Assembly: GCA_036488875.1 (NCBI GenBank)
Contig: DASXGW010000004.1
Span: forward strand, 434,001-498,000
Direction of reading: 5' to 3'
Length of the DNA stretch: 64,000 nucleotides
Source of the DNA: Candidatus Baltobacteraceae bacterium
GTDB taxonomy: Bacteria > Vulcanimicrobiota > Vulcanimicrobiia > Vulcanimicrobiales > Vulcanimicrobiaceae
In this document: piece by piece, positions 2,327-18,674 of the stretch
How positions within the stretch are numbered: the stretch's first letter is position 1
How the letters are laid out: each line of letters starts with the position of its first letter
Made by a program: the position numbers and the translations under genes
Notes under the pieces: generated by a model
What the model was told of the DNA's origin: nothing
Database searches by the model: none
What the model saw: only the letters and a program-made list of their open reading frames with translations

Positions 2327-2620
2327 ATGAGCGTCGAGTCGGCATCCCTTGACATCACTTCTACTCCTGATTATCAAGGTGCCATCTTTAAGTCGCTGCT
2401 TAGAATCGAACGGCTCCTAGCCCAGATTTTAGCAAATCCCGGTACAAGTTCCCACACGAAGCTAACGATGCCGATCAATGAGGCGGCGCGATGCCTTGGA
2501 GTTGGACGTTCAAAGCTCTACAAACTCGTGAGGACGAGACAACTTCGATCAGTACGCGTCGGAAGACGACTTTTGATTCCGACAAGTGAGTTAGACGACT
2601 ACGTGCAGGGGCGGATCTAG
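2327..2620 (+). CDS. Excisionase-like HTH (MerR/HTH_17 type) DNA-binding protein
   Basis: A 97-residue protein. Residues about 46-97 form an excisionase-type winged helix: PINEAARCLGVGRSKLYKLV is the helix-turn-helix, followed by the wing RTRQLRSVRVGRRLLIPTSE and the end LDDYVQGRI. The N-terminal 45 residues are not conserved to my eye. Such proteins bend DNA at attachment sites or act as small regulators of mobile elements. Its position beside the tRNA-like core and phased repeats suggests an Xis role, but no intact integrase is nearby (only a fragment at 19215). It could also be an orphan regulator. Confidence 0.8.
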   Translation: MSVESASLDITSTPDYQGAIFKSLLRIERLLAQILANPGTSSHTKLTMPINEAARCLGVGRSKLYKLVRTRQLRSVRVGRRLLIPTSELDDYVQGRI

Positions 2621-2703: not shown

Positions 2704-3132
2704 TCAGCCCGGAGTAGGCGCCTGGCTGGCGATCGCCTCGGCCATCAGCTGGGAGACGAGTGGGTTGGGACTCACGTAGTCCGCGTTCTGGTGGCGTACC
2801 TCGACTCCCAAAGCAGCTCCGAGAGCAGACGCGATGGCCGTGGAACGGCTAACGCCGGCTTCACAATGCACGAGAAGCATCTTCGCGTTGCGGCATCGCC
2901 GCTGCACGAAATGAAGCGTCTCATGTGCCATTTCAATTGTGAAGACGACGCGGCTGTCCTCGTAGTCTCGGTCGAGATCCAGAAAGCGTAGATCGAGTCG
3001 CGCGACGAGATTTCGGCTTCTCAACGTCGGCGCGGGGCTATCGGGATCGCAAATACTTATGATGGCAAACGGCTCCTGCCAGGAAAATTCCTCGGCGTAG
3101 GCCCGCGATGTCGAGAACACATGCTCCAGCAT
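2704..3132 (-). CDS. Protein tyrosine / dual-specificity phosphatase-like protein
   Basis: A 142-residue protein with LLVHCEAGVSRSTAIA near residue 87, the HCx5R(S/T) phosphate-binding loop of cysteine-based phosphatases. An upstream FLDLDRDY segment could supply the general acid aspartate. It is compact, one catalytic domain with no membrane segment, so it is probably cytoplasmic. It is the last gene of a three-gene minus-strand operon (4211 to 2704) with gaps of 6 bp or less. Substrates are unknown; small PTPs of this kind occur in phages and accessory islands. Confidence 0.8.
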   Translation of the reverse strand: MLEHVFSTSRAYAEEFSWQEPFAIISICDPDSPAPTLRSRNLVARLDLRFLDLDRDYEDSRVVFTIEMAHETLHFVQRRCRNAKMLLVHCEAGVSRSTAIASALGAALGVEVRHQNADYVSPNPLVSQLMAEAIASQAPTPG

Positions 3133-3138
3133 CAGGAT

Positions 3139-3459
3139 TTATTTCGGCAAGCGTTTGCGAAGCCGATCTGCGATCGCTTTCGAGTAATCGTCAACTTCGG
3201 GTACATCGAGCCAGCGTGCTCGGCGTTGCTCGTAGAACAGAAGCATTCGAAGCCCGTCCGTACTGGACACGTCAAGAGTTTTGCGGTGCTTGGCGAAGAG
3301 TTCCTTAACGAGGTTGCATGCGCTGGCAAGTTCGTCCCCGAGGACTTTGTAGCCGTCGAAACTCAGCGCGAAACGAACGAACGGTTCGTCCCAATGCTCC
3401 GGAGTAGACGGGACATCATCGCGCTTTAACCCTCTACTCGGGATTCGCTCGATTTCCAC
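3139..3459 (-). CDS. Unknown 106-aa protein, middle gene of phosphatase operon
   Basis: I do not recognise this family. The chosen start is a GTG at 3459: a GGAGGT motif sits 9 nt upstream, inside the last codons of the preceding gene, whose stop is at 3462. The same frame is open further upstream (to 3669), but that part overlaps the preceding gene and reads as non-protein-like sequence. The protein is charged and mostly helical in appearance, with a basic C-terminus, and has no membrane segment. Tight coupling to both neighbours suggests the three products act together. Confidence 0.7.
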   Translation of the reverse strand: MEIERIPSRGLKRDDVPSTPEHWDEPFVRFALSFDGYKVLGDELASACNLVKELFAKHRKTLDVSSTDGLRMLLFYEQRRARWLDVPEVDDYSKAIADRLRKRLPK

Positions 3460-3461
3460 CG

Positions 3462-4211
3462 CTACGGTACCTCCCGTAAGCGCCTTATCTCGGCTGCGAT
3501 GCCGGTCCAATATTCGGCTGGCGGCGCCGGGCCACCCGGATTTACCGGATGCTTCGCCACAACGAATACGGCGCCCGCGTTGAGCACGAAGTCCGCGGTC
3601 CATGGATCGGCGATCATTTTCGTCTGAAAGCAGTTCTTGCACTCGTCGCCACAGCCTATGACCTGCCAAGACGGGCGCAACTTCCTGCCACCACCGTACA
3701 TGATGACGAACTGCAACCGATTGCTTTGCGCCGCCTTCTCGCGTATTTTCAACGCCCGCGCCGCTCGGAAGCTGTCACGAAGCGCCTGTGCGTCAGACAA
3801 ACTATTCATAGCCAGCGCTGACATTTCTATAACGCACGTGTCTGAATCGCGTCGCCCCCATTCTGTCGCCTGACACTTGGCGATCGAATCGTTGTCAGTC
3901 TGCCTGCCTTCGTAGGCGAGGAGAAGGCGAATTAACTGTCGCCACGTACCTTGCATCGGAACGCGCTTACGCGGGCCGGGCACGAACAAATCAAGGCGCC
4001 CAATTTTCTCGTGGTGATCGAAGCAATCGATGAGGTCCCCGCTCTGCGGACCATCCGGGCACAGTTCCCGCCAGGCCGCGCATCGCGCCGCGAGGTTGTC
4101 GCCCTCCCTTTTCGCCCTTCCCGGTTCGGGACCGATGAACCAGTACGGCGCGCTCCACTTTCCGTAGCCGTACGAATACTCGGCGGCGAGTTTTATTACG
4201 TCGTTATCCAC
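3462..4211 (-). CDS. Unknown 249-aa protein, possibly UDG-superfamily-like
   Basis: First gene of the three-gene operon. Near residue 24 it has WFIGPEPG, and near the C-terminus KHPVNPGGPAP. That spacing of a GxxPG-like loop and an HPx loop resembles the two active-site loops of the uracil-DNA glycosylase superfamily, though the usual residues are not fully present, so this is a weak structural guess. Two C-x-x-C-like groups (CGDECKNC) near residue 190 could bind metal. There is no signal peptide or membrane helix. The start ATG follows a region of about 240 bp with no gene. Confidence 0.65.
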   Translation of the reverse strand: MDNDVIKLAAEYSYGYGKWSAPYWFIGPEPGRAKREGDNLAARCAAWRELCPDGPQSGDLIDCFDHHEKIGRLDLFVPGPRKRVPMQGTWRQLIRLLLAYEGRQTDNDSIAKCQATEWGRRDSDTCVIEMSALAMNSLSDAQALRDSFRAARALKIREKAAQSNRLQFVIMYGGGRKLRPSWQVIGCGDECKNCFQTKMIADPWTADFVLNAGAVFVVAKHPVNPGGPAPPAEYWTGIAAEIRRLREVP

Positions 4212-4991: not shown

Positions 4992-6308
4992 CTACGCCGC
5001 CGGGCGGCCGCGCTTGTGACAGGCCCGATGCACCAGGCGGAGGTTGTCGAGTTCGGTGCGACCGCCATCCCGGTGGGGAATCGGATGATGGTCGATCTCG
5101 ACTTCGTCCGGGTCGACGATGCCTCCGCACTCTCCGCAACGCCATTTGTCGCGCCCGCACACTTCTGCAGTCACCTCGGCGGAAGCAAAGCGACGATCGT
5201 CGAGTTGCACGCCGAAAGTCTCCGGTGGCAGCTTCTGACGCCAAAACAGGTAGTTCGCGAGTAAAGCCTCCTTGCTCGTACTCCGTGCCCGTCCGTCGCG
5301 CCCTTCACGCGCGGTCGGATCGTCGAGAACGCGCGCCGCATCGATCGCCGCCGATGCAACAGCCTTTTCGGAGATCTTCAGTCCCTGGCGCGTGGCATCG
5401 TGTATGAGCATTGAAATCGCGGCCATGTCCAGACGTCGAATCTTCTTGACTTTGGGCAACCAGCGGCGCACGGTGTCGAAGAACGTTGTCGTCAACTCGA
5501 GAATCTTCCGGAACCTGGCTGCGATCTCGCCATCTGGGTCGAAGTCAACGTGCTCATGATACATGCGGTCAAGATCTCGTGCACCGGTTCGGGGGTAGTC
5601 GCTCTCCGCACGTTCACGCGCAAGGAAAATGAGCAACAACTGCGCACACAATTGACGGTCCGCGACATACGGATCGCGCAGATCGTCGTCGTCCAGGCGT
5701 TCGAGTCCGCGCTTGTCGGTTAGCGCGAATAGCCGCACCGCAGGGTGCTTCGGCCATTTGCCGGCGAGCCGGTTTACGAACGGTCCGATCCCGCCGGGGA
5801 ACGCGTCCCGTTTCTCTTGAGCCGTTAGGGCCGTTCCTTGGTTCAAGCGGATGAAGATATCACGTACTTCGTCAGACGTCGCCTCGGACACGTAGTACGC
5901 GACAAGTTCGGAGTTGTCAAACTGCTCACGCATCTCTGGAGACAGCTCGTGATAAAAGCAGTTCGCCCAAGGTGCTTCGACCTTCACGAGACTGCGTGGC
6001 AGTTGCAGATCGGCGACCGGCAGCAGCTTAAAGTCGCCCTTACGATAGCCGCTGAGCGCGAGCGTCCTTTGGTAGCCATCGATGATTTCGAAGCTGATTG
6101 TGCGGTCGCCGTCGAGCGACGCGCCTTCGCGCTTGCGCAAGTAAAACGGTGGTATAGCGTATCCGCGAAAGATGGAGTCCACGAACCACTTCTGTTGTTT
6201 CGCGTTCCATTTTTCGCCGCGTTGGTACTCTTCGTTTGGACTCACGCTTGCGTTTGCGTGAGCTTGCACGAGTCGATCGACAGTCATGTCGTTGCGAGTG
6301 ATGATCAT
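4992..6308 (-). CDS. DUF262 (ParB/Srx-like) protein with C-terminal HNH nuclease domain
   Basis: A 438-residue protein. Residues about 10-110 are a DUF262 domain: EIIDGYQRTLAL at about 74-85 is the conserved DGxQR motif of the ParB/Srx-like NTPase fold. The C-terminal 60 residues are an HNH endonuclease: WRCGECGG, then EVEIDHHPIPHRDGG and LRLVHRACH. The layout matches GmrS/GmrD-type type IV restriction enzymes and related DUF262 nucleases that cut modified phage DNA. The ATG at 6308 has a GGAGAG site; the frame is open further upstream, but that extension is not protein-like. A stand-alone gene in the defence island. Confidence 0.85.
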   Translation of the reverse strand: MIITRNDMTVDRLVQAHANASVSPNEEYQRGEKWNAKQQKWFVDSIFRGYAIPPFYLRKREGASLDGDRTISFEIIDGYQRTLALSGYRKGDFKLLPVADLQLPRSLVKVEAPWANCFYHELSPEMREQFDNSELVAYYVSEATSDEVRDIFIRLNQGTALTAQEKRDAFPGGIGPFVNRLAGKWPKHPAVRLFALTDKRGLERLDDDDLRDPYVADRQLCAQLLLIFLARERAESDYPRTGARDLDRMYHEHVDFDPDGEIAARFRKILELTTTFFDTVRRWLPKVKKIRRLDMAAISMLIHDATRQGLKISEKAVASAAIDAARVLDDPTAREGRDGRARSTSKEALLANYLFWRQKLPPETFGVQLDDRRFASAEVTAEVCGRDKWRCGECGGIVDPDEVEIDHHPIPHRDGGRTELDNLRLVHRACHKRGRPAA

Positions 6309-7324
6309 GGTTGCTCTCCGGTTGGGTTGCGCCGCCGATGCGCGGTCGACGGCGCGGTGGGGCTCGAGCAGGGCATCACTATAGCATGCGCGCGCACGCG
6401 GCGGAAGGGGGTCGACGCGCGAATTGTGGTCGGCGCGCGCGTGCGTTTTTTGCACGATGCCATATGAGTTTTTCATCAATCGAAATAACGTGATTGCAGT
6501 CTGCGTTTTGGCAGAAATATTGCTATCAAAACGATTGGATCTATTTAGTAGATTCTTCAACGCACACGATTCAAAGTCGGGGCAAAGGCGCATTTAGCCG
6601 ATTCTTCCACGATTGCAGAACGCGGCAGCTTGGAAGCGGATTGGTACTCCGTCTTATTTGCATAAACTAGGAAGCTTGGATTTAAAAATACGCGCCATTT
6701 AAAAAAGTCGGATAAAAATATCCACCATTTTTTTGCTTTATCGAAATAAAGCCAACGAAAAAGCCTGGAAGAACCATTCCCGAGGAAAACTTTCCGGTTT
6801 GAAATCGATTCTGGTACCTATATTTAGAGAAGAACCCCGGCAATCCGGACCCGTCCCGAGTCGGGGAAAACCCCCGGTGGCCGCTCAGCCGGGGCAGGGC
6901 GCGGTCAGCGGTGGGGCGCGTTCCTTTGCCTCGCATTCCGAATCGGACGGGCCACGGCGACGTAGTGGGTTGGGTCGGCGCTTTGCGCGAGGCGGGAGGC
7001 GACATGAACGGCGGGGGACACGAATGATAAGGCAGGCCCTCGACTCGAGCGAAGGGGCTCCCTAGCTAGCGATAACATTTATTTCTCGCCACTTCATTCC
7101 AGCCCTGAAGGGGCGCCCCGACACCTTGTTACTATCCAGCTTTGAGATAACGCCTCACCTGCCGCGCGGGCTTCACCTTCAGGGGAGGATAGAAGATCGC
7201 CCCGGCCAAGACGAGCGCCGGCCGATAACGTAACCTAGTGCCGCACATCGTCCTGTGTTAGCCCCGGATTAGCACGGGGCCTTAGCGGCATGGTTTCAAC
7301 TTTCTCTCACTTCAAGAGGCGGCA
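6309..7324. other. About 1 kb without a convincing gene; promoter region, AT-rich block, hairpin
   Basis: Between the divergent DUF262 gene and the DUF6602 gene. 6470-6830 is AT-rich with runs of A and T. 6850-7060 turns abruptly GC-rich; ORFs there on both strands look like noise. A perfect stem-loop GCCCCG-N8-CGGGGC lies at 7261-7280 with no T-tract, so it may be a transcribed structured leader rather than a classical terminator. A GAGGCGG ribosome site precedes 7325. I see no transposase or tRNA. Confidence 0.5.
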
Positions 7325-8026
7325 ATGCCTAACAGATTTCTCTTACAAAGGCTCGCCGGTATTCAGGCAGCTCTCGTAGGCGCACATCAGGCGAGCTCCG
7401 GAATGTCTTCAAACACGACAGGGGCCGAGCGGCAAGAATTCATAGAGTCGTTCTTGAGGAATGTGCTGCCCACCATATACAGATTTGGAACGGGGGATGC
7501 AACGGATCTAAATGGCGCGATTAGCGGTCAGCTCGACGTAGTCGTGGAATCTCCATTCGCGCCGACGTTGCCGAACGTTGGGCTCGGGTCCACCCGTCTG
7601 TACCTAGCGGAGTCTATAGCTGCGGTTATTGAGGTAAAGTCCGATATCAGTAAACAATGGACGCAAGCCATAAAAACAGCTGCAAAGCTTGCTCCTCTCC
7701 GCCGAACCTATACCTCATCGATTAGAATGACTGACTCAAGCATCAGACTCGGCGCTGGTCCTGTGACAACAACGGACGCAATTCCGCTTTTTGTCGCTGC
7801 ATTCACGGGCTGGACGACCATGGCTTCTTTAACGAGTGCACTAAGTGGAGCAGCGGATATATCCGGGATCTTGATCATCGATGCGGGCTTATTTGCTAGC
7901 TCTTCCGCGTTTGGAGGAGTGACGGCAACGGGACCGTCGGCCTTGTGGGAGCTTATCTGCGCTCTGGATGCGGCCGTGAATAAAATTCAAATGGCATCAA
8001 TAGAGCCAAAAGCGTATCTTAAGTAA
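7325..8026 (+). CDS. DUF6602-type PD-(D/E)XK nuclease-like protein
   Basis: A 233-residue protein. Residues about 34-105 match the DUF6602 pattern: GAERQEFIESFLRNVLP, then ISGQLDVVVE with D71, then AESIAAVIEVKSDI with E103-x-K105. D71 and the E-V-K pair are the likely metal-binding residues of a PD-(D/E)XK nuclease fold. The C-terminal half is less conserved and Ala/Ser-rich. DUF6602 proteins are usually found in defence islands as presumed nucleases; the exact activity is not known. No membrane segment. Probably transcribed with the EVE-domain gene that begins 160 bp downstream. Confidence 0.75.
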   Translation: MPNRFLLQRLAGIQAALVGAHQASSGMSSNTTGAERQEFIESFLRNVLPTIYRFGTGDATDLNGAISGQLDVVVESPFAPTLPNVGLGSTRLYLAESIAAVIEVKSDISKQWTQAIKTAAKLAPLRRTYTSSIRMTDSSIRLGAGPVTTTDAIPLFVAAFTGWTTMASLTSALSGAADISGILIIDAGLFASSSAFGGVTATGPSALWELICALDAAVNKIQMASIEPKAYLK

Positions 8027-8185
8027 CGCCGAGAAAACGCGTCGCAGGATCCGCCAGGACGCCGAGTACGGAACTTCTGAATCGATAAAGGGTTAAAAGA
8101 GAATCAATTCGCTAACTTTGGTACAGCAGGTTTTATGGGGCCGCGTCGTTGGCGCGTTTCTGCGAATCTTATTGGAGCCGTAGAT

Positions 8186-8752
8186 ATGGATTGGGTCTTT
8201 CAGTGTAAGCCGAGCATCTATGATTTGCGAAAGTTACTAGCAAATGGTATATCGAGTGATTGGTGGCGGATAAACCAGCACGCAAAACTCATGACTCCTG
8301 GCGACCGAGTTTACTTTTGGGAAAGTGGAGACCACGCCGCATTACTCGCCATGGGGCAAATCGTCTCCGAGGTCGATCCTGAGAATCCCTCTGGTAGATT
8401 CGGTTCGGTCGACATCATCTACGAGTCGAAGCTTGAGCCTCCCATTCCCCGACAGGAGGTTCTACAGGATCCCATTTTAAGTCAGTTTCGAGTGTTTTCT
8501 CGCATGGAGGGCACAAATTTTCCGATTCGAGATAGTCGCGTGATCGAAGCGAAAGGGACTTGTGACCGGGACGCGTTCCGTATGGCGATCGGTCAGCTCG
8601 TGGATTACCGCCGATTTATGAAGGCGCCGCCATGTGCGATTCTGCTCCCCGAGAAGCCAAATGACGACCTACTAAGCCTCGCAAAGGCGGAGGGGATCGG
8701 CATCATTTGGCCATCTGACGAGGGCTTTGAAAAGACCTTACACTTATGGTAG
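8186..8752 (+). CDS. EVE-domain protein fused to the C-terminal half of a nuclease-like domain
   Basis: 188 residues. The first about 115 are an EVE (PUA/YTH-like) domain: MDWVFQCKPSIYDL, WWRINQHAKLMTPGDRVYFW and ALLAMGQIVSEV. EVE domains read modified bases. The remainder reads RVIEAKG (E121-x-K123) and AIGQLVDYRRFM, then AILLPEKP, matching the second half of PD-(D/E)XK nucleases of the 'GQLxDYxRF' kind. The preceding half with the metal-binding Asp is not visible, so the nuclease may be trimmed. The ATG at 8186 is chosen for its GGAG site 8 nt upstream. Likely a type IV-like modified-DNA reader and nuclease. Confidence 0.75.
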   Translation: MDWVFQCKPSIYDLRKLLANGISSDWWRINQHAKLMTPGDRVYFWESGDHAALLAMGQIVSEVDPENPSGRFGSVDIIYESKLEPPIPRQEVLQDPILSQFRVFSRMEGTNFPIRDSRVIEAKGTCDRDAFRMAIGQLVDYRRFMKAPPCAILLPEKPNDDLLSLAKAEGIGIIWPSDEGFEKTLHLW

Positions 8753-9254: not shown

Positions 9255-9761
9255 ATGCCGCGGCAGCGACGGCGTTCCGCAGAGACATATCGAAGCGCTT
9301 CTGACCTCCCTCGTGAGGGCGCAGATAGTCTGATGAAAAGCCTGGTGGTTGGACTTCCACGAGATCTAAGGAGTGACGTGCTTCGTGCCTATGAAGCGCA
9401 ACTTAGTTCACTCGCGTATACCCTGACCAACAAGGATCTTAGTCGCAGAACCCAGCGACAAGTTGAAGAACTTAGTATTGTTATCGCGCTTGCAGCATTT
9501 AATCGTTTAATTATGCTCCAGTTTCGCGGCTTTGCCGAGTTCGGAAGGACCCTAATTCGCAGACACAACGTTTTGAGTGTGGCAGTAGGGCGCGAGCAGG
9601 TGGAGCGGCATACGTTTGATGGACTTCATGACACTGCCGTGGCTTTTCAGCAACGCCTCATGCTTTGTAAAATTCCAAAGTACATGCTCGAGTACCCGGA
9701 TGTCCCTTCGCTGTTAGAGATGTACGACGCGCGTCTCGGCCGTACACCACGGGCCACCTGA
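9255..9761 (+). CDS. Unknown 168-aa helical protein, first gene of a four-gene cassette
   Basis: Not recognised. It starts with a basic stretch (MPRQRRR) and is predicted by eye to be largely alpha-helical, with a more hydrophobic helix around ELSIVIALAAFNRLIML (residues about 72-90). No catalytic motif or signal peptide is seen. A GGGGG-type ribosome site lies just upstream of the ATG after a 250-bp gene-free stretch, so this is probably the promoter-proximal gene. It stops exactly one base before the ATG of the next gene, so the two are translationally coupled. Confidence 0.75.
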   Translation: MPRQRRRSAETYRSASDLPREGADSLMKSLVVGLPRDLRSDVLRAYEAQLSSLAYTLTNKDLSRRTQRQVEELSIVIALAAFNRLIMLQFRGFAEFGRTLIRRHNVLSVAVGREQVERHTFDGLHDTAVAFQQRLMLCKIPKYMLEYPDVPSLLEMYDARLGRTPRAT

Positions 9762-10511
9762 ATGCCAGCTAGTCATGCTTTTGTTCCCCTTGATGAGATA
9801 AAGTCTGCCGTTAACGCGTTTCTGTCTGAATATGGCACTCGAATTGCGCAACACACTGACAAAATAGGCACCTACGCCGAAATCGCGGCGTATCATAGTG
9901 TGATAGAATTCTATCGCAAGTCGCACTTTAGGTGCGGTGTCGAGAACGTTAAGCAAGGCTTATTTAGGTACAAATTGACGCCTACGGGTAACCCGAGTAA
10001 TTTTTCGTACTTTTCAGTGAGAAAAAGTGGACGAGTGTATTCCGTGCTAACTAACGTGTCTGTGGAGTCCGCGCACGCAGCTCGACACTATTTCTCGGCG
10101 GACATAGTCGTTGCTGACGATCAGAGCGTCCAAATGCAACGAGGTCCAGACAACCTTGAAGTAGGAATTCGTCGCTCAGTGTTCTTCGTGCCTAATGAAT
10201 CGCTGCGTACGTTCCTCGAAATAAAGAACATGTCTCCATTCCCTGAACTGCTGTTTTCGTTTTCTGGACTGCTGTTCGAGATGATGCCCGATATTTTCTT
10301 TAAGAAGGTAGCATCGCGGAAAAGGATTCACATAGCTCCGTCGCTTGTCTGCTCATTTGCAGGATCTGGACATGCCAACTATATTCGGAGAACACTCCTG
10401 CAACGCTGGCACATAAATATCTTCACGGATTTTCTAAGCAAACGCGCTCTTGAGGGCGAAGATCTTCGAAAAATTGCAGATCGAAGACTTAAACCAAGGT
10501 CGTTGGGTTGA
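9762..10511 (+). CDS. Unknown 249-aa protein with a PD-(D/E)XK-like nuclease signature
   Basis: No named family recognised. Residues 112-119 read SADIVVAD and residues 151-157 read FLEIKNM, so D114 and E153-x-K155 have the spacing and beta-strand context of a PD-(D/E)XK nuclease core. E40 in TYAEIAAYHSVIEFY could be the upstream acidic residue. After the core, PFPELLFSFSGLLFEM resembles the helix that follows in such folds. Codons are AT-richer than in flanking core genes. It directly abuts the previous gene. A nuclease effector is my inference. Confidence 0.7.
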   Translation: MPASHAFVPLDEIKSAVNAFLSEYGTRIAQHTDKIGTYAEIAAYHSVIEFYRKSHFRCGVENVKQGLFRYKLTPTGNPSNFSYFSVRKSGRVYSVLTNVSVESAHAARHYFSADIVVADDQSVQMQRGPDNLEVGIRRSVFFVPNESLRTFLEIKNMSPFPELLFSFSGLLFEMMPDIFFKKVASRKRIHIAPSLVCSFAGSGHANYIRRTLLQRWHINIFTDFLSKRALEGEDLRKIADRRLKPRSLG

Positions 10512-10610
10512 GCATGCTTGGCCATGCGCCATTACTTGCCCAAGGCTCGATTTGGGCGCTTTCTCAAAAGCGACCCTCAAGAACCGGTTCTCTAACGAAG
10601 CGATAAGGCG

Positions 10611-11795
10611 ATGGGAGAAATCCGTGACTTAATGAACGACGCCGTCGCTTTAGTACGTAAGGCGCTGCCTGTCGCGGTCGTGGACGCGCCCGGGGAAAAC
10701 GGGATCTTGTGGTGCAGTCCTAGCGCGAGTGTCGTTCTAGAGGAGCAGCAGTCGAGACTTCTTGTTCAAGCTCTGAGTCCGCAACTCGACGCAGCCATCG
10801 GATCTCCGGCGCCATTCTCTGCGAGCGATCTCCCAGCCGAGGTGGCATCGGCTATTATTTTGCGGCTTGCAGGCGAATGGCAAAAGCCACCGACCGTGCA
10901 AGCAGTATCAAAGCAGTCAGCTCGCGGAACCTGCGGCGCGGATACTAGGGCTGGGCTCGATACAGGGATTCTCGTTACACAAAAGCGGGTTGAGGAGACC
11001 CACTACTGGTTACGAGACCAAGTAGGTCCGCTCATATCACCGGATGACGACCCAGCCGCGGCTATGGTTCAGCGCTATATCTTTTATCTTTCTACGCTCG
11101 TCGATACCGCGCAATCGTCAACGGCGTGCCTTGCGGTTCATAGACTTGATCGCGGCGTGACAATGATCCAGCGAACGTTGGCAGAGTATGCAGTTAGAGC
11201 TCGATTTGCGGTAAGCCATCCTGACCACACTCTCTGGCGGCTAACTATTGCTGAAGCTCTGGATTTCGAGAAGCGCCTAAAAGATGGCGGCGCGGATTCA
11301 AGGTCCATCGCGGCAGCGGAGGCTGCTAGGATTCAGACCGAAGCTCGTTTTGCCGCCGTCGGTGAGCTTGCCAAGAAAGCGCGCTGGAAAGATCTGCAGT
11401 TTAAGACGATGTTCGAATACGTAGCCAGCGCAGATCAACATGCGAGCCTATACCGCTGGCCGAGCGCTTTTATCCATGCAGACCCAGCCGGGATGCGGGA
11501 ACTCTTTCAGTGGGATGCTCATGGTTCCACGGTGGTCGTTCCGGATCTAAGCGACGAGGACATAAATACTGATCTTGTCGACGCCACGCTCATGCTTGTC
11601 GAATTTCTCCGCGCCTTTCGAGACGCTTTTCCTGGCCTTCACCAAAGCGAAGAGGCAGCATCGCGAATATCCGAACTGGACCGCGAGAATAGGGTGCACA
11701 CCCTGCGGTTCCCCAAGGATCGGCCGGCGATATACTTGGAGCAGGTTCGATCGGAACTCGGCCTAGCCCAATCATCTCCCCACAACAATCTGTAA
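10611..11795 (+). CDS. DUF5677-like protein of unknown function
   Basis: A 394-residue protein. The central to C-terminal part has a helical pattern that reminds me of DUF5677: VTMIQRTLAEYAVRARF and a later FEYVASADQHASLYRW followed by PSAFIHADPAGM. DUF5677 proteins are uncharacterised but recur near defence genes. The N-terminal 130 residues are of unknown fold. No membrane segment or nuclease motif is seen. The gene starts 100 bp after the previous one and is followed 11 bp later by the membrane-anchored gene. Confidence 0.65.
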   Translation: MGEIRDLMNDAVALVRKALPVAVVDAPGENGILWCSPSASVVLEEQQSRLLVQALSPQLDAAIGSPAPFSASDLPAEVASAIILRLAGEWQKPPTVQAVSKQSARGTCGADTRAGLDTGILVTQKRVEETHYWLRDQVGPLISPDDDPAAAMVQRYIFYLSTLVDTAQSSTACLAVHRLDRGVTMIQRTLAEYAVRARFAVSHPDHTLWRLTIAEALDFEKRLKDGGADSRSIAAAEAARIQTEARFAAVGELAKKARWKDLQFKTMFEYVASADQHASLYRWPSAFIHADPAGMRELFQWDAHGSTVVVPDLSDEDINTDLVDATLMLVEFLRAFRDAFPGLHQSEEAASRISELDRENRVHTLRFPKDRPAIYLEQVRSELGLAQSSPHNNL

Positions 11796-12706: not shown

Positions 12707-14290
12707 ATGCCACGCACAAGAGCGACGGCCAAGAGCTCGACGGCGAAGACAAATGGCAAGACCGGAAATGGCGGTGACCTGGGGTTCGAAGCGACACTTT
12801 GGGCGGCGGCGGATACCCTCCGCGGTTCGATGGATGCGTCCGAGTACAAACACCCCGTTCTCGGCCTGATCTTTCTCAAGTATATTTCCGACGCATTTGA
12901 AGAACTGCACGGCCAACTCGCCGACGACCGGGAGTCGGATCCCGAAGACCGCGACGAGTACATGGCGCGCAATGTCTTCTGGGTGCCGCCGGCGGCGCGA
13001 TGGTCGCAGATTGCGGCGCAGGCTAAGTCACCACGGATCGGCGAGATCGTCGACAAGGCGATGATTGCGATTGAACATGAGAACCAGCGACTGCGCGGCG
13101 TCTTGCCGAAGGAATACGCAAAGCCGTCTCTCGGCTCGACGCGCCTAGGTCAGCTCGTCGACCTCGTGAACGGCATTGGCTTGGGGGATGCTGAGGCGCG
13201 CAAGCACGACGTTATTGGGCGTGTGTACGAATACTTCCTCGGGCGATTCGCTAACGCGGAAGGGAAGGCCGGCGGCGAGTTTTACACACCGCGTTCTGTC
13301 GTTCGACTCTTGGTCGAGATGATTGAGCCATATAAAGGACGCGTCTTCGACCCGTGCGCTGGTTCTGGTGGCATGTTTGTGCAGTCGGAAGAGTTCGTGC
13401 TGGCGCACGGTGGGAAGATCGGCGATGTATCGATCTACGGCCAAGAATCGAATCATACGACGTGGCGCCTGGCAATGATGAACCTCGCGATTCGCGGGAT
13501 CGAGGCTGACATCACCTGGAACGAAGGCGGCTCGTTCCTTCAGGATGCCTATCCGGATCTAAAGGCTGACTTCATCTTGGCCAATCCGCCTTTCAACGAC
13601 AGTGAATGGGGCGGCGTCGGTTTGCGCAATGACCCGCGCTGGCGCTACGGCATCCCGCCTGCCGGGAACTCGAACTACGCTTGGATTCAGCATTTCGTCT
13701 ATCATTTGACGCCGACCGGCGTCGCCGCATTCGTGATGGCGAACGGCTCAATGTCCTCGAACCAAGGTGGCGAGGGTGAGATCCGTAGGAATATGATTGA
13801 GTCGGAAAACGGCGGCCTCATCGACTGTTTGATTGCGCTACCGGGCCAGCTCTTCTACACGACCCAGATTCCAGTTTGCGTATGGATCCTTGCGCGCAAC
13901 CGCCGAAACCACAAGTTCCGGGACCGCGGTGACGAGATTCTGTTTATTGACGCCCGCAAGATGGGTGAAATGACGGATCGGACGCACCGTGCCCTTCGGA
14001 ACGAGGATGTCGCGAAGATCGCCCAGGCCTACCACGCTTGGCGCGGGAAGGCCGGTGGTTACGAGGATGTTCCGGGTCTCTGCAAAGCAGCATCCCTCGA
14101 CGAGATTCGCAAACACGGTCACGTGCTCACGCCGGGCCGCTACATTGGAACCGAGGAGCTCGAAGGCGATGCGGAGCCATTTGCTGATAAGATGCGGCGA
14201 CTGACGTCCCTTCTTCGTGAGCAACGGACCGAAGGCGAGCGGCTTGACGACTCTATTATCGCCGCACTCGGGAACATCGGTTTTGACTGA
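12707..14290 (+). CDS. hsdM: Type I restriction-modification DNA methyltransferase subunit
   Basis: A 527-residue HsdM. It begins with a Lys/Thr-rich tail, then the N-terminal helical domain ([20 protein letters not shown]). The methyltransferase core carries FDPCAGSGG (motif I, SAM binding, residues 214-222) and LANPPF (motif IV, N6-adenine catalysis, near 292-297), preceded by [16 protein letters not shown]. It methylates host target sites in complex with HsdS and supplies the core for restriction with HsdR. Length and order are normal. First gene of hsdM-hsdS-hsdR, overlapping hsdS. Confidence 0.97.
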
Positions 14291-15581
14291 GCAACGAGTT
14301 GCGTTTGAAGAGCTAGTCGCCAATCAAATCTTGCAAATTGGCGACGGTTATCGCGCAAAAAATAGCGAACTTAACGGCAATGGTTTGCCATTCATGCGCG
14401 CGGCGCTCGTTCAGGATTCGGGAATTAATTTGGCTGGTGCCGAAAGGTTCTCGAGTAAACGCACGGCGGCCCTATTGCCTAAGTGCTCACGGCCAGACGA
14501 CGTCGTAATCACGACTAAGGGAAATAGTACTGGAAGAACAGCGGTAATTCGACCTGGCGATCCGCCAGCCGTGTACTCTCCGCACCTTTCGTTTTGGCGC
14601 GTCCTCGACCGGCGAGTCATCGATCCCGGATTCCTTCGTCAATGGGCCCGCTCAACCCAATGCCAAGAGCAGGTTCGCGCGATGATGTCGTCAACCGACA
14701 TGGCGCCATATCTAAGTCTCCGCGATCAGCTTAAGCTTTGCATCGCACTCCCGCCTCTGTCGCGGCAACGTGCAAGCGCCGCGCTTCTAGGCGCTCTCGA
14801 TGACAAGATCGACTTGAACCGCAAGATGAGCGCGACACTCGAGTCAGTAGCGCTGGCGTTGTTCAAGTCGTGGTTCGTTGACTTCGATCCCGTTCTCGCA
14901 AAAAGCGAAGGCGGCGACCCTGGCCTTCCGATAGAGATCGCCGCGATCTTCCCCGATTCGTTCGAGGAGTCGGAGTTAGGAAGAATTCCGAAAGGCTGGA
15001 GCGCGGCGCCCTTATCAGAGATTCTGGAAGAGAGTATCGAACGAATTGGGAACCAGGCTGCCCCGGAATATTCCTCTACGAATGAGGGTCTTCAGCTAAG
15101 ATCGGTCCGGTTTAAGAAGACACTTTCCCGATCGGCGACTAGAAACAAACTGATTCGGCGAGGCTACTTCGTTTTCGGCCTGAGTCGAAAGGTGCTAAAT
15201 TTTGGCATAATGCGCGATGAACTCGGTAGCGTAAGCCCGGCCTACAAGGTCTTCCGCGTCGTCAACCCCTCCGTTCCACCCGCTATGCTTGAAAGACTTA
15301 TGCGGGCGAGCCCCAGTTATTACTATCGTGCGATCTCTGCGAGCTCGCGAGAGGGTCAGGCGGTCTCAACGCAAGCACTCGGAGTGCTTAAGATAGTGCA
15401 GCCGCCGCAGGCCATCCAAGATTGGTTCTTTAGCATCGAAATGGCCTTAGCGCAGCGCATGAAAGCAGCAGAAAGAGAATCACATACTCTGTCCTCGATC
15501 CGAAACGCGCTTTTGCCAAAGCTAATCTCTTGTGAGATCTGTGAAGCAGATGCGGAGCGCGTTGTGGAGCGGTCCACTTAG
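14283..15581 (+). CDS. hsdS: Type I restriction-modification specificity subunit
   Basis: About 432 residues with two target-recognition domains separated by the conserved helices [20 protein letters not shown] and [11 protein letters not shown], and the closing [13 protein letters not shown]. HsdS chooses the DNA target for both methylation and cleavage. The start is taken as TTG 14283, which overlaps the hsdM stop by 8 nt and gives [12 protein letters not shown] directly before the first recognition domain; a GTG at 14217 is also open. The recognition domains are the variable, transferable part, so specificity cannot be read. Confidence 0.93.
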
Positions 15582-18500
15582 ATGGCAGGGTACCTCGACG
15601 AAGATGCGATCGAGCAATACGCGATCGACCTCTTCAAGGGCGTCGGCTATGCCTATCAACATGGCTCGATTATTGCACCCGGCGGCGCCGCCGAGGAACG
15701 CGCATCGTTCAAAGATGTAGTACTTGTTGGGCGATTGCGCACCGCACTGCGCCGCTTGAATCCGGCGATTCCGGTTTCTGCGCTCGATGAGGCGCTGCGC
15801 AAGCTTATAGTCCACGAGACGACTGATCTCGTGCTCAACAATCAGCGTTTCCACAAGTTCATGATCGAAGGTGTGGGTGTCGAGTATAGTGATGGCGCGG
15901 GTGGTGTTCGCTATGCTAAAGCACGGATCATCGACTTCGAGAAACCCGACGGGAACGACTGGCTCGCAGTCAATCAATTCACCGTCAAAGAGGATGCTGG
16001 TGAACGCCGCCCTGACCTGCTGGTCTTTATTAACGGTCTGCCGGTCGCGCTTTTCGAGTTCAAGAACCCGATGGATGAGAAAGCCACAATTCTCAGTGCC
16101 TTTCGTCAGACACAGACCTACAAGCGCGATTTACCCGGCCTGCTCGCGTACAACGAGCTATTGATTGTCGCGGACGGAACGCAGGCGAAGGTGGGTTCAC
16201 TCACGGCGGATTGGGAGCGCTTTAGCACGTGGAAACGTGAAGACGGTGCCAAAGTTCCAGTTGAGATCGAACCGCTCGTCAACGAAGTCTTCCAGAAACG
16301 GCGGCTGCTCGATATCCTGCGACACTTCATCCTGTACGAAGCAACGATGCCGCCGAACAAGATCCTAGCTGCCTATCACCAGTATTATGCCGTAAACAAA
16401 GCGGTCGAGCGGACCATCACGGCCACTGCTGACGGTGGCGATCGCCGAATTGGCGTGTTTTGGCATACGCAGGGCAGCGGCAAGAGTCTCTCAATGACTT
16501 TCTACGCCTCGAAGGTCGCCCAGCAGCCACAGCTTGCCAATCCCACACTGGTGGTTCTGACCGACCGCAACGATCTCGATGATCAACTATTTGGTCAGTT
16601 CATGCGCTGTACAGAGTTCTTGCGCCAAGCGCCCGAACAAGCCGAAGGGCGCGAGGATCTGCGCAGGGCTCTTACGGTCGCCTCTGGGCACATCGTTTTC
16701 ACCACGATTCAGAAGTTTTTTCCAGAAGGTGACGGCAGCCGCCATCCGGCGGTTACGGATCGTCGAAACGTCATCGTGATCGCGGATGAAGCGCATCGTA
16801 GCCAGTATGGATTCGAAGGGAAGGTGGATGAGGAGTCCGGCCAAACAGTCTACGGATTCGCTCGACACCTGCGCGACGCATTGCCGAAAGCGTCATTCAT
16901 TGGCTTCACAGGAACCCCAGTCGAGCTGTCCGACCGCAATACGCGCAGTGTCTTTGGGGATTATATCGACGTGTATGATGTCCGTCGCGCCGTAGAGGAC
17001 GGCGCCACGGTGCCGATATACTATGAGGCTCGCATCGTCAAAGTCGAGCTCGATCCTGTGAAGGTCTCGTACCTCGACGAAGAGTTCGAGGAGATTACCG
17101 AGGGGCAAGAGGACGACGAGAAACGCCGCAGCGCGAGCCGCTGGTCACAGATAGAAGCGCTTGTCGGAACGGACGCCCGCATTGACGAAATCGCCCGTGA
17201 CCTTGTCGAACACTTTGAGCAGCGACAGAAGGGCTTCGAGTTCGAGGGCAAAGCGATGATCGTCTGTATGAGCAGGCGCATTTGTGCGCGGCTCTACCAG
17301 GCGATCGTCGCGCGACGACCTAAGTGGCACGACGATGCCGACGAGCGGGGAACGATTAAGGTCGTCATCACGGGAAGCGCGGCGGACGATCTGCTCTTGC
17401 AGCCACACATCCGCAACAAACCGCGACGCCGCACGATCGAGAAGCGTTTCAAACACGCGAGCGATTCGCTCAAACTCGTGATCGTGCGCGACATGTGGCT
17501 GACCGGCTTCGATGTGCCTTCACTGCACACAATGTACGTCGACAAGTCGATGAAAGGGCATAGCCTTGTCCAAGCGATCGCGCGCGTGAATCGGGTGTTC
17601 AAGACTAAGGCTGGCGGTCTAGTCGTCGACTATTTTGGCATCGCCGACGACCTCAAGCGGGCGTTGGCGACCTACATCGACTCAGGTGGTACAGGCAATC
17701 CGGTGTTGGACGAGCGCGACGCCGTCGCAGTGTTGCAGCGCGATTACGAAGTCGTGCGCGGTATGTTCCACGGTTTTCCTTACCAGGCATATATCGACGC
17801 CGATACCGCACAGAAGATGCTCGGACTGACGAATGGTGCAGACCACATACTCGGTCTGGACGACGGGAAGAAACGGTATCTTCGAGCGTGCGCCAGCCTT
17901 GCGAAGGCATTTTCGCTAGCTTCGACCGCAGACTACGCTCGAGGGATCGCGGACGAGGTCGCGTTCTTCAAGGGTGTGCGATCGACGATCGTTAAGATCA
18001 CGCCGCTTAGCGGACAAAGCCTTGAGGAGATTGACCTCGCTTTGCAGCAGCTCGTCTCTGAGGCAGTCGGTTCACGTGGGATCGTCGACGTCCTTGAGCA
18101 GGCCGGGGTCAAGCGGCCAGACATCGCGGTGTTCTCCGACGACTTTCTGGCGGAACTCGCCGGTATAGAGCAGCGTAACCTCGCACGCGAAATGCTTGAG
18201 CGGCTTTTACGCGACGAGATTAAGGTTCGGTCGAAGCAGAACGCTGTTCAGGCGCGTAGGTTTTCAGACATGCTTTCTGAGGCAATTGCCAAGTATGAGA
18301 ACCGATCAGTCACTACGATGCAGCTGATTGAGCATCTCATCGCGTTTGCGAAAGAATTGAGAGACGAGCCAAAGCGCGCTGACGCAATGGGGCTCTCAGA
18401 TGACGAGCTGTCATTCTACGATGCCCTGGCCCAAAGTAAGAACGCGTTAGAGGTCCTTGGGGACACTCGACTACGCGCGATCGCGCGCGACCTTGTTAAG

Positions 18501-18674
18501 AGCGTCCGTGAAAGCGCCACCATCGATTGGAATCTCCGAGAAAGCGTTCGCGCCGGTATCCGATTGAAGATCAAGAAGTTGCTCCGCAAGCACGGCTACC
18601 CGCCAGACGCCACCGAAGAGGCCACAGAACAGGTGCTAGAACAGGCAGAGTTGCTCTGCCAAGTCGCTGCCTAA
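15582..18674 (+). CDS. hsdR: Type I restriction endonuclease subunit
   Basis: 1030 residues, full length for the family. The N-terminal nuclease has RRPDLLVF (D145) and ALFEFKNP (E159-x-K161), the PD-(D/E)XK site. The motor has HTQGSGKS (Walker A, 295-302), ADEAH (401-405) and FIGFTGTP (motif III). It translocates DNA using ATP and cuts at a distance from unmethylated sites bound by HsdS. The ATG begins right after the hsdS stop codon. No disruption is visible, so the system should be active. Confidence 0.97.
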   Translation: MAGYLDEDAIEQYAIDLFKGVGYAYQHGSIIAPGGAAEERASFKDVVLVGRLRTALRRLNPAIPVSALDEALRKLIVHETTDLVLNNQRFHKFMIEGVGVEYSDGAGGVRYAKARIIDFEKPDGNDWLAVNQFTVKEDAGERRPDLLVFINGLPVALFEFKNPMDEKATILSAFRQTQTYKRDLPGLLAYNELLIVADGTQAKVGSLTADWERFSTWKREDGAKVPVEIEPLVNEVFQKRRLLDILRHFILYEATMPPNKILAAYHQYYAVNKAVERTITATADGGDRRIGVFWHTQGSGKSLSMTFYASKVAQQPQLANPTLVVLTDRNDLDDQLFGQFMRCTEFLRQAPEQAEGREDLRRALTVASGHIVFTTIQKFFPEGDGSRHPAVTDRRNVIVIADEAHRSQYGFEGKVDEESGQTVYGFARHLRDALPKASFIGFTGTPVELSDRNTRSVFGDYIDVYDVRRAVEDGATVPIYYEARIVKVELDPVKVSYLDEEFEEITEGQEDDEKRRSASRWSQIEALVGTDARIDEIARDLVEHFEQRQKGFEFEGKAMIVCMSRRICARLYQAIVARRPKWHDDADERGTIKVVITGSAADDLLLQPHIRNKPRRRTIEKRFKHASDSLKLVIVRDMWLTGFDVPSLHTMYVDKSMKGHSLVQAIARVNRVFKTKAGGLVVDYFGIADDLKRALATYIDSGGTGNPVLDERDAVAVLQRDYEVVRGMFHGFPYQAYIDADTAQKMLGLTNGADHILGLDDGKKRYLRACASLAKAFSLASTADYARGIADEVAFFKGVRSTIVKITPLSGQSLEEIDLALQQLVSEAVGSRGIVDVLEQAGVKRPDIAVFSDDFLAELAGIEQRNLAREMLERLLRDEIKVRSKQNAVQARRFSDMLSEAIAKYENRSVTTMQLIEHLIAFAKELRDEPKRADAMGLSDDELSFYDALAQSKNALEVLGDTRLRAIARDLVKSVRESATIDWNLRESVRAGIRLKIKKLLRKHGYPPDATEEATEQVLEQAELLCQVAA

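What the first reader, a model, noticed from the sequence alone, without database searches (positions are those of the whole stretch)
2704..4211. Compact operon: UDG-like protein, 106-aa protein and tyrosine phosphatase
Seen: three coupled minus-strand genes; the middle one starts with a GGAGGT site inside the first gene's end; the last has an HCEAGVSRS active site. Signals such as WFIGPEPG and HPVNP in the first resemble UDG loops. A phosphatase teamed with a possible base-excision-type protein would be an unusual combination. I know no named system with this layout.
Basis: partly seen in the sequence, partly recalled or inferred. Interest (0 to 1): 0.7.

Follow-up and report, generated by a model that had tools for sequence, protein, structure and literature searches.

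The report
Unnamed UDG-like glycosylase in defence island
Three small bacterial genes include an enzyme with the shape of a DNA-repair enzyme that cuts damaged letters out of DNA, but with one key letter-reading residue changed as in a recently found anti-virus enzyme; it belongs to an unnamed family and sits among virus-defence genes, although the exact three-gene set was found in only this genome.

Summary
In detail: three close-packed minus-strand genes (249, 106 and 142 aa) at 2704-4211, in a GC-poor island of an Eremiobacterota genome. The 249-aa protein matches no Pfam, NCBIfam, PHROG or PADLOC family. Its relatives lie in at least 16 genomes of the phylum and in scattered Pseudomonadota, Gemmatimonadota and Patescibacteria. 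A confident AlphaFold2 model (pLDDT 89) and a family profile both pick uracil-DNA glycosylases (UDGs) first, so the UDG reading holds for fold. The family is distinct: motif 1 is G-x-E-(P/E)-G with an invariant Glu, motif 2 has an invariant His, and the strand that carries the uracil-reading Asn in UDGs ends in Glu. Brig1, an anti-phage glycosylase for modified cytosine, has the same Asn-to-Glu change. Several relatives lie near modification-dependent nucleases or type I restriction genes. Best reading: a Brig-like base-excision enzyme against modified phage DNA (inferred). The phosphatase is a DSP-type enzyme whose nearest relative sits elsewhere; the 106-aa protein is an orphan. Neither was found beside any of about 29 glycosylase relatives, so a conserved three-gene system is not supported.

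The parts
3462..4211 (-). Gene 1: 249-aa UDG-fold protein of an unnamed family (GTG start)
   Evidence: ORF; family; model pLDDT 89.2; UDGs top hits
4119..4133 (-). UDG motif 1 equivalent, G27-P-E29-P-G31; Glu29 invariant, at the third (water-activating) position of motif 1 of families 1 and 2
   Evidence: comparison with PMC5387724
3825..3827 (-). Glu129, last residue of strand 125-129, where UDGs have the base-reading Asn and Brig1 has Glu147
   Evidence: 20 of 21 full-length members have Glu; strand; Brig1 from PMC11078745; position inferred from strand order
3546..3551 (-). UDG motif 2 equivalent, H221-P222; His invariant
   Evidence: the HP of this segment aligns with the HP of motif 2 of family-4 UDGs in hhalign, weak score
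3469..3474 (-). GGAGGT ribosome-binding site of gene 2, inside the end of gene 1
   Evidence: sequence
3139..3459 (-). Gene 2: 106-aa orphan protein, possibly helical
   Evidence: best of six frames by codon model; no relatives; single-sequence model pLDDT 45, not reliable
2704..3132 (-). Gene 3: 142-aa dual-specificity/tyrosine phosphatase-type protein
   Evidence: PHROG 5614 1.8e-15; DSPc 2e-5, below gathering; PDB DSPs 7e-7 with family profile
2839..2868 (-). P-loop HCEAGVSRS(T): Cys90 nucleophile, Arg96; invariant in the family; Asp52 is a candidate general acid
4992..6593 (-). Neighbour: GmrSD N-terminal domain plus HNH, modified-DNA type nuclease
   Evidence: PF03235 1.6e-14, PF01844 1.6e-7; PADLOC NsnA 8e-26
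7325..8026 (+). Neighbour: DUF6602, NucC/PD-DExK-like nuclease
8135..8752 (+). Neighbour: divergent accessory EVE-domain (modified-base reader) protein
   Evidence: PF01878 1.8e-8; about 9 such divergent EVEs in 149 genomes
12707..18674 (+). Neighbour: type I restriction-modification M, S and R subunits

Best explanation
Gene 1 encodes a member of an unnamed branch of the UDG superfamily that flips out and hydrolyses a base from DNA, with Glu29 (motif 1) activating water and His221 (motif 2) stabilising the leaving base. Because Glu129 replaces the Asn that reads uracil, the substrate is more likely a cytosine-type, modified base in invading DNA than uracil. The resulting abasic sites would block phage replication or be cut by host AP endonucleases, as with Brig1. 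Genes 2 and 3 are co-transcribed passengers or local accessories: gene 3 is a DSP-type phosphatase of a family found on its own elsewhere, and gene 2 is an orphan. Shown by computation: operon layout, family, fold similarity, motif conservation, defence neighbourhood. Inferred: glycosylase activity, base specificity, anti-phage role.
For: Confident AF2 model (pLDDT 89.2, pTM 0.89). Foldseek: the four best PDB hits are UDGs (1ui1, probability 0.99) and the best viral hit is a UDG-like protein (probability 1.00). The only PDB hits of the family profile are UDGs. Glu29, Asp62 and His221 are invariant and Glu129 is kept in 20 of 21 full-length members across several phyla. [quoted passage not shown] Brig1 has Glu147 in the Asn position and needs it for defence (PMC11078745); UNG N204D excises cytosine (PMC11162499). 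Defence context: the window has GmrSD_N-HNH, an accessory EVE and type I R-M; in G119 a relative lies beside an EVE-Mrr protein and HsdM; in a Beijerinckiaceae MAG a relative is followed after about 20 nt by an HNH protein with a type-IV-like N-terminus and then by a SNF2 helicase. Two of about 9 accessory EVE genes in 468 Mb lie within 5 kb of the 19 family loci, expected 0.004; three strong N6-methylases lie within 10 kb, expected 0.06. The genome already has three ordinary PF03167 UDGs.
Against: Foldseek TM-scores are below 0.5 and the E-values modest. The family-profile hits are weak (E 0.26 and above) and come from essentially one UDG subfamily. hhalign scores against family-4 and family-5 UDGs are low. 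The Glu129-to-Asn equivalence rests on strand order, not on superposed coordinates. A motif-1 Glu at the third position is not known to be active: the E41G-G42E mutant of Thermus UDGa was dead (PMC5387724). Many relatives have no defence gene nearby, and one lies just downstream of ybaB-recR, which fits repair. The enrichment test was post hoc. No direct comparison with the Brig1 sequence was possible.
Confidence: 0.45

Rival explanations
1. Gene 1 is a repair-type glycosylase for a deaminated or oxidised base (for example hypoxanthine, xanthine or an oxidised pyrimidine), carried patchily and not aimed at phages.
For: UDG families 2, 3, 5 and 6 act on diverse deaminated bases (PMC5387724). 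One relative lies just after ybaB and recR. Most relatives are single genes without a recurring partner.
Against: Patchy distribution (about 16 of 149 genomes), the GC-poor island in this genome, and closeness of several relatives to type IV and type I restriction genes. The genome already holds three canonical UDGs.
Confidence: 0.27
2. A dedicated three-gene defence system: the glycosylase makes abasic sites, and the phosphatase or the 106-aa protein unmasks the base, processes the site or controls the glycosylase.
For: Tight operon with a ribosome-binding site embedded in the preceding gene. Brig3 has an operon partner hydrolase, BapA, that unmasks its base (PMC13160076).
Against: Neither partner lies beside any of about 29 glycosylase relatives. 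The nearest phosphatase relative (55% identity) is elsewhere in a genome without this trio. The 106-aa protein has no detectable relative.
Confidence: 0.12
3. Gene 1 has a UDG-like fold but is not a catalytically active glycosylase: a binding or sensing protein for modified DNA, or another hydrolase.
For: Very low sequence similarity to known UDGs. Glu instead of Asp or Asn in motif 1 and Glu instead of Asn in the pocket are unusual.
Against: The polar pocket candidates (E29, D62, Q114, E129, Y172, H221) are strongly conserved across phyla, as expected of an enzyme.
Confidence: 0.14

Closest known systems
Brig1 (anti-phage alpha-glucosyl-5hmC DNA glycosylase; PMC11078745)
   Same: UDG-like predicted fold; Glu in place of the uracil-reading Asn; similar size (about 29 kDa); sits in defence islands
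   Different: No sequence link could be tested here; different neighbours; Brig1 activity is shown experimentally, here it is inferred
Brig3 with BapA (5hmC glycosylase plus deglucosylating hydrolase in one operon; PMC13160076)
   Same: A glycosylase gene in an operon with another gene, inside a defence island; acidic pocket residue (D127)
   Different: The partner is an ASCH-domain hydrolase, not a phosphatase; its authors compare the Brig3 core with human AAG
Family 4 UDG / UdgX (PF03167)
   Same: Best structure and profile hits; glycine-rich motif 1 after the first strand and His-Pro motif 2 near the end
   Different: Not recognised by PF03167; motif 1 is GxE(P/E)G, not GE(A/G/Q)PG; pocket Glu for Asn
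Small bacterial DSP-type tyrosine phosphatases (PHROG 5614; COG5350 by recollection only)
   Same: HCxAGxSRS loop, conserved SIxD, FxD and PN positions; relatives found away from any UDG-fold gene
   Different: Here it is the third gene of an operon with a UDG-fold gene

Membership tests
UDG superfamily | UDG-type alpha/beta/alpha fold | tested here: met
   Confident model; UDGs are the top hits in PDB and BFVD, probability 0.99-1.00, though TM is below 0.5
UDG superfamily | Detected by the UDG profile PF03167 at its cut-off | tested here: not met
   No Pfam hit; the PF03167 scan of G000 finds three other genes, not this one
UDG superfamily | Motif 1 with polar catalytic residue and motif 2 His | tested here: met
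   Invariant G27-x-E29-(P/E)-G31 and H221; Glu at the third position is not the Asp or Asn described for families 1 and 2
UDG superfamily | Asn at the end of the second strand for uracil recognition (families 1 and 4) | tested here: not met
   Glu129 in 20 of 21 full-length members, Trp in one; position by strand order. This lowers the claim that it is a uracil glycosylase, not that it has the fold
Brig-type anti-phage glycosylases | Sequence homology to Brig1 | not testable with these tools
Brig-type anti-phage glycosylases | Glu on the Watson-Crick face in place of Asn | tested here: inconclusive
   Glu129 by strand order; no superposed coordinates
Brig-type anti-phage glycosylases | Located among defence genes | tested here: met
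   Window and several relatives; enrichment of accessory EVE and N6-methylase genes; not all relatives
Brig-type anti-phage glycosylases | Excision of modified bases and phage protection | not testable with these tools
   Needs experiment
Dual-specificity / tyrosine phosphatases (CX5R) | HCX5R(S/T) loop | tested here: met
   HCEAGVSRS; the HCxAGxSRS pattern is invariant in the six aligned sequences
Dual-specificity / tyrosine phosphatases (CX5R) | Conserved general-acid Asp upstream of the loop | tested here: inconclusive
   D29 and D52 invariant; which one acts is unknown
Conserved three-gene system | The same genes recur together in other genomes | tested here: not met

The most novel reading that the evidence does not exclude
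A new class of anti-phage base-excision enzyme, with a catalytic Glu in motif 1 and a Glu in the base pocket, evolved separately from Brig1 and aided in this genome by a phosphatase that strips a phosphate-bearing or other masking group from the modified base or processes the cut end.
Probability: 0.08. Interest if true: 0.8.

Novelty: new variant of a known kind. Interest (0 to 1): 0.5.

Why it matters
Base excision as an anti-phage weapon was described only in 2024 (Brig1), and phage-modified bases are diverse. A separate, unnamed UDG-fold branch with the same pocket substitution, in several cases next to modification-dependent nucleases and mostly in under-studied phyla, is a concrete list of about 30 genes to test for new base specificities. 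Glycosylases of new specificity are also useful for base editing and for mapping modified bases. The specific pairing with a phosphatase, if it were functional, would be new, but the comparative evidence is against it as a conserved system.

Tried and rejected
Trio as a conserved system: rejected for the held genomes, since no recurrence was found in 149 phylum genomes or at about 29 glycosylase loci. Phage or plasmid origin of gene 1: no match in the phage or plasmid records or in viral contigs. Relatives of the 106-aa protein: sequence searches, a pattern for LF(F/Y)EQRR and a viral scan gave nothing; the one weak viral match (L093) did not encode a like protein. The single-sequence fold of the 106-aa protein was unusable. 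Profile alignment to family-4 and family-5 UDGs aligned the ends but not the middle, so the Glu129 equivalence could not be shown by alignment. An empty-site comparison failed because the flank has no substantial DNA match in the relatives. Promoter and terminator scans were at background.

Full report
Observation. The three minus-strand ORFs exist at the stated coordinates: 4211-3462 (249 aa), 3459-3139 (106 aa) and 3132-2704 (142 aa). Gaps are 2 and 6 nt, and GGAGGT at 3474-3469 lies inside the end of gene 1. A codon model built from other genes of the window gives the annotated frame as the best of six for all three, so the 106-aa ORF is probably a gene. The trio lies at the left end of a GC-poor stretch, about 2-21 kb. 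The window belongs to a 3.7-Mb genome (G000); related contigs retrieved by name are mostly Candidatus Eremiobacterota / WPS-2 MAGs.

Gene 1: family. The protein has no hit in Pfam, NCBIfam, PHROGs or PADLOC. It has clear relatives in the phylum: 18 of 149 genomes at E <= 0.01, of which two are marginal, with 19 loci used below. A profile search extended the family to Beijerinckiaceae, Massilia, a Methylococcales symbiont, Gemmatimonadota, Patescibacteria/Paceibacterota and one contig binned as Klebsiella, and to a few further genomes of the Massilia family (4 strong hits in 394 genomes). No relatives were found in phage or plasmid records or in viral contigs.

Gene 1: fold. With a 22-row alignment of relatives AlphaFold2 gave pLDDT 89.2 and pTM 0.89. 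Foldseek against the PDB ranked family-4 UDG of Thermus (1ui1, probability 0.99), a second family-4 UDG, UdgX and a Bradyrhizobium UDG first, with SMUG1 also among the hits. Against viral models the best hit was a UDG-like domain protein, probability 1.00. TM-scores of the two best hits are only 0.39-0.48. A profile of the family searched against all PDB sequences returned only UDGs (UdgX and close kin, E 0.26-1.3); this is one independent lead, not 24. Together these support a UDG-type fold (about 0.88, inference).

Gene 1: active site. G27, E29, G31, D62 and H221 are invariant and E129 is kept in 20 of 21 full-length members. In UDGs the third residue of motif 1 (Asp64 in family 1, Asn in family 2) activates water and is missing in families 4-6, motif 2 carries the His that stabilises the leaving base in families 1 and 4, and an Asn (Asn80 in Thermus UDGa, Asn123 in E. 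coli UNG) reads uracil (PMC5387724). Here the third residue is Glu and the second motif has His. The second strand (125-129) ends in Glu129 where UDGs have the Asn; this assignment is by strand order because profile alignment failed in the middle of the protein. In Brig1, which excises alpha-glucosyl-5hmC from phage T4 DNA, Glu147 takes the place of that Asn, and E147A and E147Q impair defence (PMC11078745). Changing the same Asn to Asp in human UNG gives cytosine excision (PMC11162499). A cytosine-type substrate is therefore the preferred guess (about 0.35). One caution: the E41G-G42E mutant of Thermus UDGa was inactive, so Glu in motif 1 needs the right surroundings.

Neighbourhood. In the window, the gene upstream of gene 1 on the same strand, about 0.8 kb away, is a GmrSD_N-HNH gene; beyond it lie a DUF6602 NucC-like nuclease, an EVE protein and a complete type I R-M system. 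GmrSD acts on glucosylated 5hmC (PMC13216743) and fast-evolving EVE domains sit in modified-DNA restriction contexts (PMC7641849). In G119 a relative lies beside an EVE-Mrr fusion and a type I methylase. In the Beijerinckiaceae MAG the relative is followed by an HNH protein whose N-terminus matches a type IV enzyme, and by a SNF2 helicase of DrmD/BrxH type. In G103 a relative is beside PADLOC candidate systems PDC-M30/M41. By contrast one relative lies after ybaB-recR, and several have no recognisable defence gene.

Enrichment. Most genomes of the phylum have one strongly conserved EVE gene; divergent accessory EVEs number about nine. Two of these lie within 5 kb of the 19 family loci, against 0.004 expected under random placement, and three strong N6-methylase genes lie within 10 kb against 0.06. 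The test was chosen after seeing the neighbourhood and ignores general clustering of accessory genes, so it shows island association, not a specific partnership.

Genes 2 and 3. The 142-aa protein has the CX5R loop HCEAGVSRS; the pattern HCxAGxSRS is invariant in six aligned sequences together with SIxD, FxD and PN. It matches PHROG 5614 (1.8e-15) and, by profile, dual-specificity phosphatases of known structure (about 1e-6). Its nearest relative (55-56% identity) is a chromosomal gene of G108 between unrelated genes. The 106-aa protein has no convincing relative. Neither occurs next to any glycosylase relative.

Verdict. The valuable part is the unnamed UDG-fold family itself, with a Brig1-like pocket change and a defence setting. 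It works, most likely, like Brig1; membership in the Brig family could not be tested.

Noticed in passing
L116:1501-1983, L124:1501-1983 (G017, G073; probably also G000:C15:167-652): Family-4-like UDGs with GEQPGDxED and KRRIH segments, resembling the DNA-crosslinking enzyme UdgX (resemblance from memory), occur in this phylum including the sister genome of the window.
   Followed up: no
L025 (G119:C3) and L154 (Beijerinckiaceae MAG): Two UDG-fold relatives carry C-terminal extensions of roughly 100-150 aa without a known domain; both sit next to type-IV-like nucleases.
   Followed up: partly
L152:3372-4235: A 288-aa protein that looks like a GIY-YIG nuclease by eye (YAFVVDNTILYVGKTSGSLNSRL) starts 28 nt after a UDG-fold relative; no Pfam hit supports this.
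   Followed up: partly
window 9255-11795: Three further genes between the EVE gene and the type I R-M system (168 aa, 249 aa, DUF5677 394 aa); the first two match no Pfam family, a possible uncharacterised defence module.
   Followed up: no
window 2327-2620: Small HTH_17 excisionase-like gene next to the phosphatase gene, convergent with it, at the left edge of the GC-poor island.
   Followed up: no
L028:7637-8420, L032:8444-8863: Two family members look frameshifted or truncated, so the gene appears to decay in some genomes.
   Followed up: no
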